A stretch of 64,000 nt of DNA, from the NCBI GenBank assembly GCA_032173965.1, contig CM063311.1, positions 186,001 to 250,000 on the forward strand, in the 5' to 3' direction. Shown piece after piece: positions 1-44,400 of the stretch. Position 1 is the stretch's first letter, and the number at the start of each line of letters is the position of its first letter. Made by a program: the position numbers and the translations under genes. Below the pieces are notes generated by a model. The model did no database searches, had not been told where the DNA came from, and saw only the letters and a program-made list of their open reading frames with translations. The DNA is from Sitta carolinensis (lineage: Eukaryota > Chordata > Aves > Passeriformes > Sittidae).

Positions 1-34
1 AAATCCTGGGGTTCCTCCAGGAAAACCGGGAGAC
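1..34 (-). CDS. AXL: AXL exon 4, 5' edge, cut by window start (or its last duplicate)
   Basis: The acceptor CCCGCAG is followed by codons for GLPVFLEEPQD, matching the start of AXL Ig domain 2. The exon runs off base 1. The same edge occurs at 554, 976 and 1419 (start positions, minus strand). This outermost copy is the best candidate for the true exon, but it too could be a duplicate. Confidence 0.5.
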
Positions 35-3000
35 CTGCGGGAAAGATGGGATTTATAAATTGGGGAAAATCTGGGGAAAATTGGGGAAAAATTTGGGGGA
101 GTTTGGGGGAAATTTGGGGTTGGAAACGGCAAAAAACAAGAGAAAAAGGGGATTTTTTTGGGATTTTTTTAGATTTTTTTGGGATTTATGGGGATTTATT
201 GGGTTTATTGGGGATTTATTGGGGATTTATTGGGGATTTATTGGGGATTTATTGAGGATTTATTGGGGATTTATGGGGGATTTATTGAGGATTTATTGGG
301 ATTTATTGAGGATTTATTGGGGATTTATTGGGATTTATTGGGGATTTATTGAGGATTTATTGGGGATTTATTGGGGATTTATTGGGGATTTATGGGGGAT
401 TTATTGGGGATTTATTGGGATTTATTGAGGATTTATTGGGATTTATTGGGGATTTATTGGGGATTTATTGGGATTTATTGGGGATTTTTGGGTTCAGGTT
501 TGGGGTCAGGGGGAACCCACAAATCCTGGGGTTCCTCCAGGAAAACCGGGAGACCTGCGGGAAAGATGGGATTTATAAATTGGGGAAAATCTGGGGAAAA
601 TTGGGGAAAAATTTGGGGAGTTTGGGGGAAATTTGGGGTTGGAAACGGCAAAAAACAAGAGAAAAAGGGGATTTTTTTGGATTTTTTTAGATTTTTTTGG
701 GATTTATGGGGATTTATTGGGGTTTATTGGGATTTATTGGGGATTTATTGGGGATTTATTGGGGATTTATTGAGGATTTATTGGGGATTTATAGGGGATT
801 TATTGGGGATTTATGGGGGATTTATTGGGGATTTATTGGGGATTTATTGAGGATTTATTGGGATTTATTGGGGATTTATTGGGGATTTATTGGGATTTAT
901 TGGGGATTTTTGGGTTCAGGTTTGGGGTCAGGGGGAACCCACAAATCCTGGGGTTCCTCCAGGAAAACCGGGAGACCTGCGGGAAGATGGGATTTATAAA
1001 TTGGGGAAAATCTGGGGAAAATTGGGGAAAAATTTGGGGAGTTTGGGGAAATTTGGGGTTGGAAACGGCAAAAAACAAGAGAAAAAGGGGATTTTTTGGG
1101 ATTTTTTTTGGATTTTTTTTAGATTTTTTTGGGATTTATGGGGATTTATTGGGGATTTATTGGGGATTTATGGGGATTTATTGGGGATTTATGGGGATTT
1201 ATTGGGGATTTATTGGGGATTTATTGGGATTTATTGGGGATTTATTGGGGATTTATTGAGGATTTATTGGGGATTAATTGGGGATTTATGGGGGATTTAT
1301 TGGGGATTTATTGGGGATTTATTGGGGATTTATTGGGATTTATTGGGGATTTTTGGGTTCAGGTTTGGGGTCAGGGGGAACCCACAAATCCTGGGGTTCC
1401 TCCAGGAAAATCGGGAGACCTGCGGGAAAGATGGGATTTATAAATTGGGGAAAATCTGGGGAGAATTGGGGAAAAATTTGGGGGAGTTTGGGGGAAATTT
1501 GGGGTTGGAAACGGCAAAAAACAAGAGAAAAAGGGGATTTTTTGGGATTTTTTTTGGATTTTTTTTAGATTTTTTTGGGATTTATGGGGGATTTATTGGG
1601 GATTTATTGGGATTTATTGGGGATTTATTGGGGATTTATGGGGATTTATTGGGATTTATTGGGGATTTATTGGGGATTTATGGGGATTTATGGGGATTTA
1701 TTGAGGATTTATTGGGATTTATTGGGGATTTATTGGGATTTATTGGGGATTTATTGGGGGATTTTGGGGAATTCCGGGGGAATCTGGGGAAATCTGAGGG
1801 ATTTTTCGGAATTCCCAGTGGATTTTTTGGGAATCCCAAGGGAATTTTGGGAGGTTTGAGGTGGATTTTGGGGATCCCTGAGGGGGTTTAGGGGGGGATT
1901 TGGGAATTCTGAGGGAATTTTGGGAATCCCGAGGGAATTTTGGGAATCCCGAGGGAATTTTGGGGAATTTTGGGGCGATTTCAGGGCGGGATTTGGGGAA
2001 TTCTGCGGGAATTTTGGGGAAATTTATTTTTTTTTTTCTTCTTTTTGAATTTGGGGCATTCCGGGGTGGGGATTTTTTGGGAATTTTGGGAATTTTGGGA
2101 ATTTTGGGGGGTTCCCTCACCTGCCAGCTCCAGGCGCGCCTCGCGGGAAAGCAGCCGCGCCCCTCCCCCCCTGCGGGCCCAGCAGCGATAGCGGGCGGGA
2201 GCGGAGACCGGGAAGAGCCTGGAATGGGGAAAATCGGGAATGGGGGAATTGGGGATTGGGGATTGGGATTGGGGATTGGGGATTGGCTGAGAGCGGAGAC
2301 CGGGAAGAGCCTGGAATGGGGAAAAATCGGGAATGGGGAATTGGGGATTGGGGATTGGGATTGGGGATTGGGATTGGGGATTGGCCGAGAGCGGAGACCG
2401 GGAGGAGCCTGGAATGGGGAAAAATCGGGAATGGGGGAATTGGGGATTGGGGATTGGCTGGGAATGGACACCAGGAAGAGGCTGGAAAGGGGAAAATCGG
2501 GAATGTGGGAATTGGGATTGGTTGGGGATTGGCCAGGAATGGGGGGGAAATCGGGAATGTGGGAATTTGGGGATTTGGGGATTGGGGATTGGCCAGGAGC
2601 GGAGACCGGGAAGAGCCTGGAATGGGGAAAATCGGGAATGTGGGAATTTGGGAATGGGGATTGGGGATTGGGATTGGGGATAGGGATTGGGGATTGGGGA
2701 TTGGGGATTTGGATTTGGGATTTGGGATTGGCGATTGGGGATTTGGGATTGGGGATTGGATTGGGGATTGGCCGTGAGCGGAGACCGGGGAGAGCCTGGA
2801 ATGGGGGAAAAATCGGGAATGTGGGAATTGGGGATTGGGATTGGCCGGGAGCGGAGACCGGGAAGAGCCTGGAATGGGGAAAATCGGGAATGTGGGAATT
2901 GGGGATTGGGGATTGGGAAATTTGGATTTGGGATTTGGGATTTGGGTTTGGAATTCGGCGTTAGGGAATTTGGGGTTTGGGAATTGGGGATTTGGGGATT

Positions 3001-41377: not shown

Positions 41378-41493
41378 TCAGCAGCCGCAGCTCTGCCGGG
41401 CCGGGGCCGGAGCCCCCCGGGGCTGCCGGAGCTGCCGGAGCGACGCGTCCCCGTACTGGATCCCCGATCCCATCCGCTCGGGATCCAGCTCCC
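41378..41493 (-). CDS. RAB4B: RAB4B exon 7: hypervariable tail
   Basis: 116 nt from CCTGCCAG to TGA (41380-41378). It encodes [20 protein letters not shown] and a divergent [17 protein letters not shown] end with the prenylated cysteines. Its 5' ~40 nt are duplicated upstream about four or five times. Confidence 0.95.
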
Positions 41494-44400
41494 CTGGCAG
41501 GGAAAAATGGGAATTTGGGAAATTTGGGGGGTCATGGATCCACTCAGGAAAGAAACGGGAATTGTGGGGTCCCAAAATTCCCTAAAATCCCCCTTAGATC
41601 ACCCCAGATCCCCGTACTGGATCCCAGATCCCTTGGGATCCACTTCCCCTGGCAAGGAAAAATGGGAATTTGGGAATTTTGGGGGGGGTCATGGATTCAC
41701 TCAGGAAAAACCCGGGAATTGTGGGGTCCCAAAATTCCCTAAAATCCCCCTTAGATCCCCCCCGATCCCCGTACTGGATCCCAGATCCCTCGGATCCACT
41801 TCCCCTGGCAGGGAAAAATGGGAATTTGGGAAGTCCTGGATTCACTCAGGAAAAACCCAGGAATTGTGGGGTCCCAAAATTCCCTAAAATAAAAAAAAAA
41901 TCCCCCTTAGATCACCCCAGATCTCTGTACTGGATCCCAGATCCCTCGGGATCCACTTCCCCTGGCAGGGAAAAATGGGAATTTGGGAAATTTGGGGGGT
42001 CATGGATTCACTCAGGAAAAACCCAGGAATTGTGGGGTCCCAAAATTCCCTAAAATCGAAAAAAAAAAAAAACCCTTAGATCACCCCCGATCCCCGTACT
42101 GGATCCCTGATCCCATGTGCTTGGGATCCAATTTTCCTGGCAAGAAAAATGGGATATGGGGAATTTTGGAGGGTCCTGGATTCACTCTGAAAAAAATTGG
42201 AATTGTGGGGTCCCCAAATTCCCTAAAATCAAAAAAAAATCCCTGAAATCCCCCTCAGATTCCCGATCCCTGATCCCTCGGGATCCAATTCCCCTGGAAA
42301 AGGGGAATCCCGAACTGTCATCCTTGGGATCCGGAATCTCCCGAAATTCCTGACTGCCTCAAAATTCCCGGTCTCCCAACCCCTGCCTCCTTGGATCCCC
42401 ATCGCAATCCCAAATCCCAGATCCCGATCTCAGATCCCGGATCCCAATCCCAATTCCCATTCCCAATCCCAATCCCAATCCCAGATCCCAGATCCCGGAT
42501 CCCAATCCCAATTGCCAATCCCAATTGCCAATCACTGATCCCAATTGCCAATCCCAGATCCCAATCCCAATCCCAGATCCCAATCACAGCTCCCAATTCC
42601 CATTCCCAATCCCAATCCCAATCCCAGATCCCAATCACAGCTCCCAATCCCAATTCCCAATCCCAATTCCAATCCCAGATCCCAATCCCAATTCCCAATC
42701 CCCAATCCCATTCCCAATCCCATTCCCATTCCCATTCCCAATCCCAATCCCAATCCCACTGCTGGTACCAGACTCGATCTTGTTGAGGATGGTGCGGGCG
42801 CATTTCAGGAACGCTCAAATTCCCAGAATTCCTGATTCCCTGGGATCCACCCCCTCCCTCCCACGATCCCAATGTCAATTCCCAATCCCAATCCCAATCC
42901 CACTGCTGGTACCAGACTCGATCTTGTTGAGGATGGTGCGGGCGCATTTCAGGAACGCCCAAATTCCCAGAATTCCTGATTCCCTGGGATCCACCCCCTC
43001 CCTCCCACGATCCCAATTCCCAATCCCAATCCCAATCCCAATCCCACTGCTGGTACCAGACTCGATCTTGTTGAGGATGGTGCGGGCGCATTTCAGGAAC
43101 GCCTCCTCCACGTTCTCGCCCGTCAGCGCGCTCGTCTCCAGGAACATCAGCTCTGATCCCGCGGGAATTCCCTCAGCAGCGCCGGGATCCCGCGGCCCCG
43201 CCGCCCATGGGATCCTCCAGGGATCCCCATTCCCATCGGGATCCCCCACGGATCCCCCATTCCCACTGGATCCCCATGGATCCCCCATTCCCATGGATCC
43301 CGCATTCCCACAGATCCCCCATTCCCATTGATCCCCCATTCCCATCGGATCCCCCAGGATTCCCCATTCCCATGGATCGGATCCCCATTCCCATGGATCC
43401 CCCATTCCCATTGGGATCCCCCATTCCCATGGATTCCCCATTCCCATTGGGATCCCCCATTCCCATGGATCCCGCATTCCCACAGATCCTGTTATTCCCA
43501 TGGATCCCCCATTCCCATTGGGATCCCCCATGGACCCCCATTCCCATGGATCCCGCATTCCCACAGATCCTGTTATTCCCATGGATCCCCCATTCCCACT
43601 GGATCCCCCATTCCCATGGATTCCCCATTCCCATTGGGATCCCCCATTCCCATTGGGATCCCCCATTCCCATGGATCCCCCATTCCCATTGGGATCCCCC
43701 ATTCCCATGGATCCCCCATTCCCATTGGGATCCCCCATTCCCATGGATCCCCCATTCCCACTGGGATCCCCACTTCCCACAGATCCCCCCATTCCCACTG
43801 GGATCCCCCCATTCCCACTGGGATCCCCCATTCCCATTGGGATCCCTTCCTTTTTTCACCATTTTCCCCCCTTTTTTTTCCCACTTTTTTCCCCCATTTT
43901 CCCAATTTTTTTCCTTTTTGTTTTCCCCCGTTTTCCCCCCATTTCCCCCCTTTTTTTTCCCAGTCTTTCCCCCCATTTTCCCCCTTTTTTTTCCCAGTCT
44001 TTCCCCGCTTTTTCCCGTTTTTTCCCCGCTCACCGTTCTCCTGGGCGAAGCGCGAGGCCTCCAGGAACGTCACCTCCCGCTCGCCCTCCAGGTCCTTCTT
44101 GTTGCCACACAGGATGATGACGATGTTGGGGCTGGCCAAGGTCCTCGCGTCCGTCAGCCACTGGGCCAGCGCGTTGTACGTCTCCCGGCTGGAATTCCAG
44201 GAATTCCGGGAATTCCCCATCCAGAAATGCGAAAGAAATGGGGAAAAACCATGAAAAAAACGGGGAAAAAACGCCCTAAAAATGTCATCAGTACAGGTGG
44301 TGACGTCATCAATGCACAGGGTGAGGTCACACTCAGCTGCTGGAGGGTTCCAAGCTGGAATTCCGGGAATTCTGGGAATTTGGGATCCAGAAATGCAAAA

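What the first reader, a model, noticed from the sequence alone, without database searches (positions are those of the whole stretch)
1..43152. Minisatellites seeded at splice junctions in three unrelated genes
In AXL, CYP2 and RAB4B, tandem arrays repeatedly contain a splice junction plus 20-75 nt of exon. The direction is consistent: 5' exon edges with their acceptors are copied upstream (AXL exons 2, 3, 4; CYP2 exons 2, 3, 5, 7, 9; RAB4B exon 7), and 3' edges with their donors are copied downstream (AXL exon 2; CYP2 exon 7; RAB4B exon 6). The copy at the exon is the only full-length one. This suggests a process that duplicates outward from exons into introns, such as repair or replication slippage anchored at junctions, R-loops, or selection that keeps the innermost copy. 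It floods the transcripts with decoy splice sites. I know of no named class for this.
Basis: partly seen in the sequence, partly recalled or inferred. Interest (0 to 1): 0.88.

Follow-up and report, generated by a model that had tools for sequence, protein, structure and literature searches.

The report
Exon edges copied through bird introns
In three neighbouring bird-like genes, pieces of exon with their splice site are repeated through the adjoining introns; this is real but matches a kind of repeat growth on tiny bird chromosomes that was described and named "exon stuttering" in 2026.

Summary
In a CYP2 gene, RAB4B and a gene that is probably AXL, 8 of 17 acceptor edges and 3 of 16 donor edges have partial copies (20-72 nt of exon plus splice site) in the adjacent intron; AXL exon 2 adds a weak ninth acceptor. 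This is the "exon stuttering" that Hron et al. (2026, PMC12954441) described in 115 chicken genes; 190 of their 236 introns lie on dot chromosomes.

"Seeded at junctions, duplicating outward" is not supported. Junction 24-mers are repeated less often (9 of 17 acceptors, 3 of 16 donors) than non-exonic positions (82%), with no peak at junctions. Outward direction is forced by any tandem duplication spanning a junction. A toy simulation without seeding gives 8-49% of junctions with decoys if all spanning events are kept; 33% is observed. Copies of one array share one exonic endpoint, pointing to one founding duplication followed by amplification.

Read-through from 25 of 26 decoy acceptors breaks frame or meets a stop. 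An acceptor bias is suggestive only (p = 0.07). Nine of 16 introns are affected, against 3.4% of dot-chromosome introns in the paper. No RNA, reads or relatives could be examined.

The parts
1..34 (-). AXL exon 4, 5' edge (cut by window start)
   Evidence: GLPVFLEEPQD match to recalled human AXL, E 0.97; acceptor gcag|GTCTCC
521..1419 (-). three decoy copies of the AXL exon 4 acceptor edge (521-554, 943-976, 1386-1419), units about 420-520 bp
   Evidence: 97-100% over 34 nt; alignment
2121..2218 (-). AXL exon 3
   Evidence: no tblastn hit; placed by reading splice sites and frame
2291..2868 (-). decoy copies of the AXL exon 3 acceptor edge (strong: 2291-2310, 2596-2616, 2846-2868; further weaker ones visible)
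   Evidence: 20-23 nt exact exon matches; sequence
5094..5304 (-). AXL exon 2 (the frame that matches AXL changes inside it)
   Evidence: tblastn E 0.010
4559..4954 (-). two decoy copies of the AXL exon 2 donor edge (4559-4616, 4901-4954)
   Evidence: 98-100% over 54-58 nt; GT kept
5451..5471 (-). weak single copy of the AXL exon 2 acceptor (21 nt shared, 8 nt of exon)
   Evidence: sequence; 24-mer test
13863..14033 (+). CYP2 exon 1, no decoys
16846..17008 (+). CYP2 exon 2
16691..16731 (+). decoy of CYP2 exon 2 acceptor edge
   Evidence: 95% over 41 nt
19356..19505 (+). CYP2 exon 3
18858..19253 (+). three decoys of CYP2 exon 3 acceptor edge (first exonic bases 18858, 19033, 19198)
   Evidence: 92-100% over 53-54 nt
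22403..22534 (+). CYP2 exon 4, degraded (stops in each frame, no canonical donor where I placed its end), no decoys
   Evidence: no tblastn hit; placed by reading
25198..25375 (+). CYP2 exon 5
23686..24811 (+). three decoys of CYP2 exon 5 acceptor edge (23686, 24192, 24767)
   Evidence: 96-98% over 44-45 nt
29287..29428 (+). CYP2 exon 6, no decoys
30524..30711 (+). CYP2 exon 7, decoys on both sides
30026..30455 (+). two decoys of CYP2 exon 7 acceptor edge
   Evidence: 94-97% over 65 nt
30797..31231 (+). three decoys of CYP2 exon 7 donor edge
   Evidence: 90-92% over 69-72 nt; GT kept
33576..33717 (+). CYP2 exon 8, no decoys
37940..38121 (+). CYP2 exon 9 (GKRLCLGEG, the haem-binding motif; motif name recalled)
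36854..37841 (+). seven decoys of CYP2 exon 9 acceptor edge, 154-157 bp units
   Evidence: 100% over 58 nt in six, one indel in the seventh
41378..41493 (-). RAB4B exon 7 (last)
41609..42136 (-). four decoys of RAB4B exon 7 acceptor edge (first exonic bases 41648, 41804, 41961, 42136)
   Evidence: three of four pass 40 bits, one of four 42.1 bits
43057..43152 (-). RAB4B exon 6
42769..42959 (-). two decoys of RAB4B exon 6 donor edge
   Evidence: 100% over 46-47 nt

Best explanation
This is exon stuttering. In the array-saturated introns of what looks like an avian dot chromosome, random local tandem duplications sometimes have one breakpoint in the intron and the other 20-72 nt inside an exon. 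Such an event leaves the innermost exon intact and puts a decoy splice site with an exon stub in the intron. The unit is then amplified or lost with the rest of the intronic array by slippage, unequal exchange or gene conversion. Purifying selection on the coding sequence, not a seed at the junction, makes every array stop at an exon and look outward. Shown: structure, shared endpoints, no enrichment at junctions. Inferred: the amplification mechanism and the neutrality of decoys.
For: Tandem arrays of TRF score 50 or more cover 85% of 1..43152. Around acceptors repeatedness falls from 76-100% at 24-400 nt before the exon to 53% at the junction, 38% at +30 and 13% at +60, without a peak at the junction. 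An unseeded simulation gives 8-49% of junctions with decoys of 20 nt or more when all spanning events are accepted, at 83-90% intron coverage; 11 of 33 observed. Decoys in an array share one exonic endpoint in 9 of 9 arrays tested. In RAB4B exon 7, three inner decoys share a 6-nt deletion that the exon and the outermost decoy lack, so they came from a decoy and not afresh from the exon. Only 8 of 26 decoy acceptors lie a multiple of 3 upstream and 1 of 26 reads openly in frame, so there is no sign of selection for use. Published parallel: 115 genes, 236 introns, median exon part 36 bp, 183 of 192 screened exon-stuttering introns length-variable (PMC12954441).
Against: Acceptors are hit more than donors (9 of 17 against 3 of 16, Fisher p = 0.07) and the 200 nt before acceptors are more repeated than the 200 nt after donors (0.84 against 0.62, p = 0.010); a blind process predicts neither. 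In the simulation, short units alone (10-30 bp) give only 8%, and accepting just 10-30% of spanning events gives 2-24%, below the 33% observed; so the fit needs broad unit lengths and little selection against decoys. Observed exonic depth (median 53.5 nt) is shallower than in the three broad-length runs that accept all events (71-103 nt). Shared substitutions give little help to the single-founder idea: 12 of 88 variable columns set all decoys against the exon, 73 vary among decoys. The dot-chromosome location is not proven here.
Confidence: 0.8

Rival explanations
1. Junction-anchored duplication: repair, replication or R-loop events tied to splice sites repeatedly copy exon edges outward.
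For: Nine acceptor and three donor edges are involved, with acceptors favoured.
Against: Junctions are less repeated than non-exonic sequence; all copies compared in an array share one endpoint; affected introns have coding-strand GC skew from -0.75 to +0.72 and G4 motifs on either strand, so no consistent R-loop polarity.
Confidence: 0.1
2. Assembly artefact: extra copies were introduced by mis-assembly of noisy long reads.
For: Frame changes by homology in CYP2 exons 5, 8 and 9 and AXL exon 2, and stops in CYP2 exon 4, suggest base errors or gene decay.
Against: In 9 of 10 arrays aligned, copies differ from one another or from the exon by substitutions or indels (RAB4B exon 6 copies are identical); RAB4B reads as an intact 213-residue protein yet has decoys; the same structure was checked against raw nanopore reads in chicken PHF8 by Hron et al.. 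Exact copy numbers could still be wrong.
Confidence: 0.05
3. Functional decoys: the copies are kept for alternative splicing or regulation.
For: All 26 decoy acceptors keep AG and 7 of 7 decoy donors keep GT; the CYP2 exon 9 decoys have no substitution in 58 nt of exon.
Against: 25 of 26 read-throughs shift frame or stop; 8 of 26 distances divisible by 3, near one third; the exonic part is less diverged than the neighbouring 60 intronic nt in only 4 of 6 arrays.
Confidence: 0.05

Closest known systems
Sequence / exon stuttering on chicken dot chromosomes (Hron et al. 2026, PMC12954441)
   Same: Lateral part of an exon with its donor or acceptor tandemly copied into the adjacent intron, imperfect units of tens to hundreds of bp, introns filled with local arrays, exon itself kept.
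   Different: Denser here: 9 of 16 introns against 190 of 5,572 dot-chromosome introns (3.4%) in their screen; 24 of 32 hits start within 1 base of the border here against over 90% there. AXL, RAB4B and CYP2 are not named in their main text; their gene list (Fig. S5) could not be opened.
Internal tandem repeats at exon-intron boundaries in human segmental duplications (PMC2812944; passages read)
   Same: Minisatellite expansion across exon-intron boundaries that alters splice-site supply.
   Different: There the repeats lie in exons or at boundaries and may form new introns in transcripts; here they fill existing introns and the exon is unchanged.
[quoted passage not shown] passages read, including parts of the abstract)
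   Same: One tandem duplication crossing an intron-exon boundary and carrying branch site, polypyrimidine tract and 3' splice site.
   Different: Single duplication that made a new spliced intron; here multi-copy arrays and no evidence of new introns.

Membership tests
Exon stuttering (Hron et al. [quoted passage not shown]
   29 hits of 42.1 bits or more, all proximal, 0 distal, 9 of 16 introns
Exon stuttering (Hron et al. 2026) | Copied part starts at the exon border and spans into the intron | tested here: met
   24 of 32 hits of 40 bits or more start within 1 base of the border, 8 do not (2-22 nt), a lower share than the over 90% of the paper; intron sequence is shared across the junction
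Exon stuttering (Hron et al. 2026) | Introns heavily covered by simple repeats | tested here: met
   85% of 1..43152 in TRF arrays of score 50 or more
Exon stuttering (Hron et al. 2026) | Source exons remain intact | tested here: inconclusive
   RAB4B intact, 213 aa; CYP2 exons 4, 5, 8, 9 and AXL exon 2 show stops or frame changes, error or decay not separable
Exon stuttering (Hron et al. 2026) | Strong preference for avian dot chromosomes | not testable with these tools
Exon stuttering (Hron et al. 2026) | Intron length variable between individuals | not testable with these tools
   No reads or second individual at hand
Intron gain by tandem duplication | A new spliced intron in transcripts | not testable with these tools
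   No RNA data

The most novel reading that the evidence does not exclude
Tandem duplication in these introns favours their 3' ends: acceptor edges are copied more often than donor edges in a way that follows transcription and not the chromosome strand, which would point to a transcription- or splicing-linked mutational process.
Probability: 0.15. Interest if true: 0.7.

Novelty: new member of a known kind. Interest (0 to 1): 0.4.

Why it matters
It adds three neighbouring genes with unusually dense exon stuttering. It turns the open question of mechanism into simple tests: no junction peak, one founder endpoint per array, and a possible acceptor bias. It also warns annotators that exon-like fragments with good splice sites in such introns can be array units and not exons.

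Tried and rejected
Junction seeding: rejected on the repeatedness profile and the unseeded simulation. R-loop or G4 polarity: no consistent strand. Decoy constraint: exonic part less diverged than the neighbouring intron in 4 of 6 arrays; not decisive. Shared-substitution test for a single founder: weak, 12 of 88 columns. Microhomology at breakpoints: looked at by eye only, no count; the outer breakpoints are overwritten by later arrays. Acceptor against donor: p = 0.07 with AXL exon 2 counted, 0.14 without. The endpoint permutation used depths typed in from the BLAST hits for 28 decoys in 9 arrays; AXL exon 4 (cut by the window), CYP2 exon 2 (one decoy), one RAB4B exon 7 decoy (41961) and the weaker AXL exon 3 copies were left out. 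A count of non-exonic unrepeated islands (38 of 52 islands of 40 nt or more in 1..43152) showed that single-copy stretches are not only exons; it was not taken further. Rfam gave 0 matches in the window. Pfam scans of 20 ORF pieces from 52-63 kb (some overlap) gave domains only for the zinc-finger ORF.
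Full report
What is there. The first 49 kb carry three genes whose order (AXL, CYP2, RAB4B) resembles human 19q13.2 (order recalled, not from a call). RAB4B and CYP2 rest on tblastn with recalled human proteins and on PDB sequence matches: RAB4B hits Rab-4B first and CYP2 exons 1-3 hit cytochrome P450 2B4 first. AXL rests on two weak tblastn matches (E 0.010 and 0.97), an exon 3 placed by reading, and gene order, so its name is probable only. 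I placed 19 coding exons with their splice sites. RAB4B reads as an intact 213-residue protein. In CYP2 exons 5, 8 and 9 and AXL exon 2 the frame that matches the family changes within the exon, and CYP2 exon 4 has stops in each frame and no canonical donor where I placed its end. Sequencing error and gene decay cannot be told apart here.

The observation. TRF arrays of score 50 or more cover 85% of 1..43152 and 76% of the window. With the published screen settings (blastn-short, 20 nt or more) exon sequences give 36 hits, 35 in the adjacent intron and 1 elsewhere, 2 of them antisense. At 42.1 bits there are 29, all adjacent, in 9 of 16 introns. At 40 bits there are 32, with exonic parts of 20-72 nt, median 53.5. 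Thirty base shuffles give at most 30.2 bits; thirty block shuffles give 5 hits of 40 bits or more in all, the best 44.1. Edges with decoys of 20 nt or more: acceptors of AXL 3 and 4, CYP2 2, 3, 5, 7, 9 and RAB4B 7 (8 of 17); donors of AXL 2, CYP2 7 and RAB4B 6 (3 of 16). The AXL exon 2 acceptor has one weak copy with 8 nt of exon. The clearest case is CYP2 exon 9: seven upstream copies of the acceptor and first 58 nt, spaced 154-157 bp, six of them identical to the exon over those 58 nt and the seventh with one indel. All 26 tabulated decoy acceptors keep AG and all 7 decoy donors keep GT.

It is a named phenomenon. Hron et al. 2026 (PMC12954441; I read the abstract, sections 7, 9 and 16, the first of two parts of section 8 and search passages) call it sequence stuttering, and exon stuttering when an exon edge is included. 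They report 115 genes and 236 introns in chicken, 190 of those introns on dot chromosomes; exon parts of 20-187 bp, median 36; 1-44 copies, median 4; over 90% of sources within 1 base of the border; and 183 of 192 screened exon-stuttering introns variable in length between birds. They leave the mechanism open; the words acceptor and donor occur once each in the main text, without a comparison of the two. One paper in the library holds the terms "sequence stuttering" or "exon stuttering"; wider searches listed no second account that I recognised from titles and abstract starts. Whether AXL, CYP2 or RAB4B are in the supplementary list could not be checked.

Seeding. For each position I asked whether the surrounding 24-mer recurs within 3 kb at 20 of 24 or better. 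It does for 82% of non-exonic positions in 1..43152 and 24% of exonic ones. Around the 17 acceptors it runs 94% at -100, 82% at -24, 53% at the junction, 38% at +30 and 13% at +60 (16 and 15 exons long enough for the last two). Around the 16 donors it runs 50% at -100, 75% at -24, 19% from -12 to the junction, 20% at +30 and 7% at +60. There is no peak at junctions. The three donor junctions that pass are CYP2 7, RAB4B 6 and RAB4B 4; the AXL 2 donor, which has decoys, fails because two bases are inserted beside its junction, and RAB4B 4 passes without a decoy of 40 bits. A simulation of random tandem duplications that refuses only events which would change the exon gave 8-49% of junctions with decoys of 20 nt or more when spanning events were all accepted, for four unit-length distributions at 83-90% intron coverage, and 2-24% when only 10-30% were accepted. 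The observed 11 of 33 lies in the unseeded range if units vary widely in length and decoys cost little; it does not need a seed. The outward direction follows from geometry alone, because a duplication across a junction always leaves the full exon innermost.

Founders. In 9 of 9 arrays tested, the decoys compared (28 in all) stop at the same exonic place within 4 nt (sum of ranges 8; 0 of 20000 permutations of the pooled depths reach it). In RAB4B exon 7 the three inner decoys share a 6-nt deletion absent from the exon and from the outermost decoy. Both fit one founding duplication per junction and later amplification of decoys; a breakpoint fixed by sequence would explain the first but not the second. 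Shared substitutions say little: 12 of 88 variable columns set all decoys against the exon, 73 vary among decoys.

Consequences. Reading from a decoy acceptor to the true exon in phase is open and in frame in 1 of 26 cases, and 8 of 26 distances are multiples of 3. So decoy use would mostly give broken messages and there is no sign that units are selected to preserve frame. That exon definition favours the inner site is an inference from general knowledge of splicing.

Asymmetry. Acceptors outnumber donors, 9 of 17 against 3 of 16 (Fisher p = 0.07; 0.14 without the weak AXL case), and the 200 nt before acceptors are more repeated than the 200 nt after donors (0.84 against 0.62, Mann-Whitney p = 0.010). 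Genes on both strands contribute acceptor decoys. This is suggestive only, and the tests treat linked junctions as independent. Coding-strand GC skew of affected introns runs from -0.75 to +0.72, and G4 motifs occur on either strand in both affected and unaffected introns, against a simple R-loop account.

Limits. No RNA, no reads, no second individual and no other bird could be consulted; the genome search could not be reached and the protein search was off. That the window is avian and lies on a dot chromosome is inferred from gene order and repeat texture.

Noticed in passing
54421-56339 and 62078-63999; 52683-53709 and 59083-60106: Two blocks repeated in the same order 6.4-7.7 kb apart (90% and 94% identical); the ORF at 54782-55885 carries C2H2 zinc fingers (Pfam PF00096), so this looks like a tandemly duplicated zinc-finger gene.
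   Followed up: partly
22403-22534, 25198-25375, 33576-33717, 37940-38121: CYP2 exons 5, 8 and 9 change their family-matching frame within the exon and exon 4 has stops and no canonical donor, while RAB4B beside it is intact.
   Followed up: partly
5094-5304: AXL exon 2 has two extra bases just before its donor that both decoy donors lack, and the matching frame also shifts inside the exon.
   Followed up: partly
introns in 35-49556: Many introns have strong GC skew of their own sign (coding strand -0.75 to +0.72), changing from one intron to the next within one gene.
   Followed up: partly
148-1764, 22544-23278, 40374-41122: Similar GGGGATTTATT-type arrays occur in AXL intron 3, CYP2 intron 4 and the CYP2-RAB4B spacer.
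   Followed up: no
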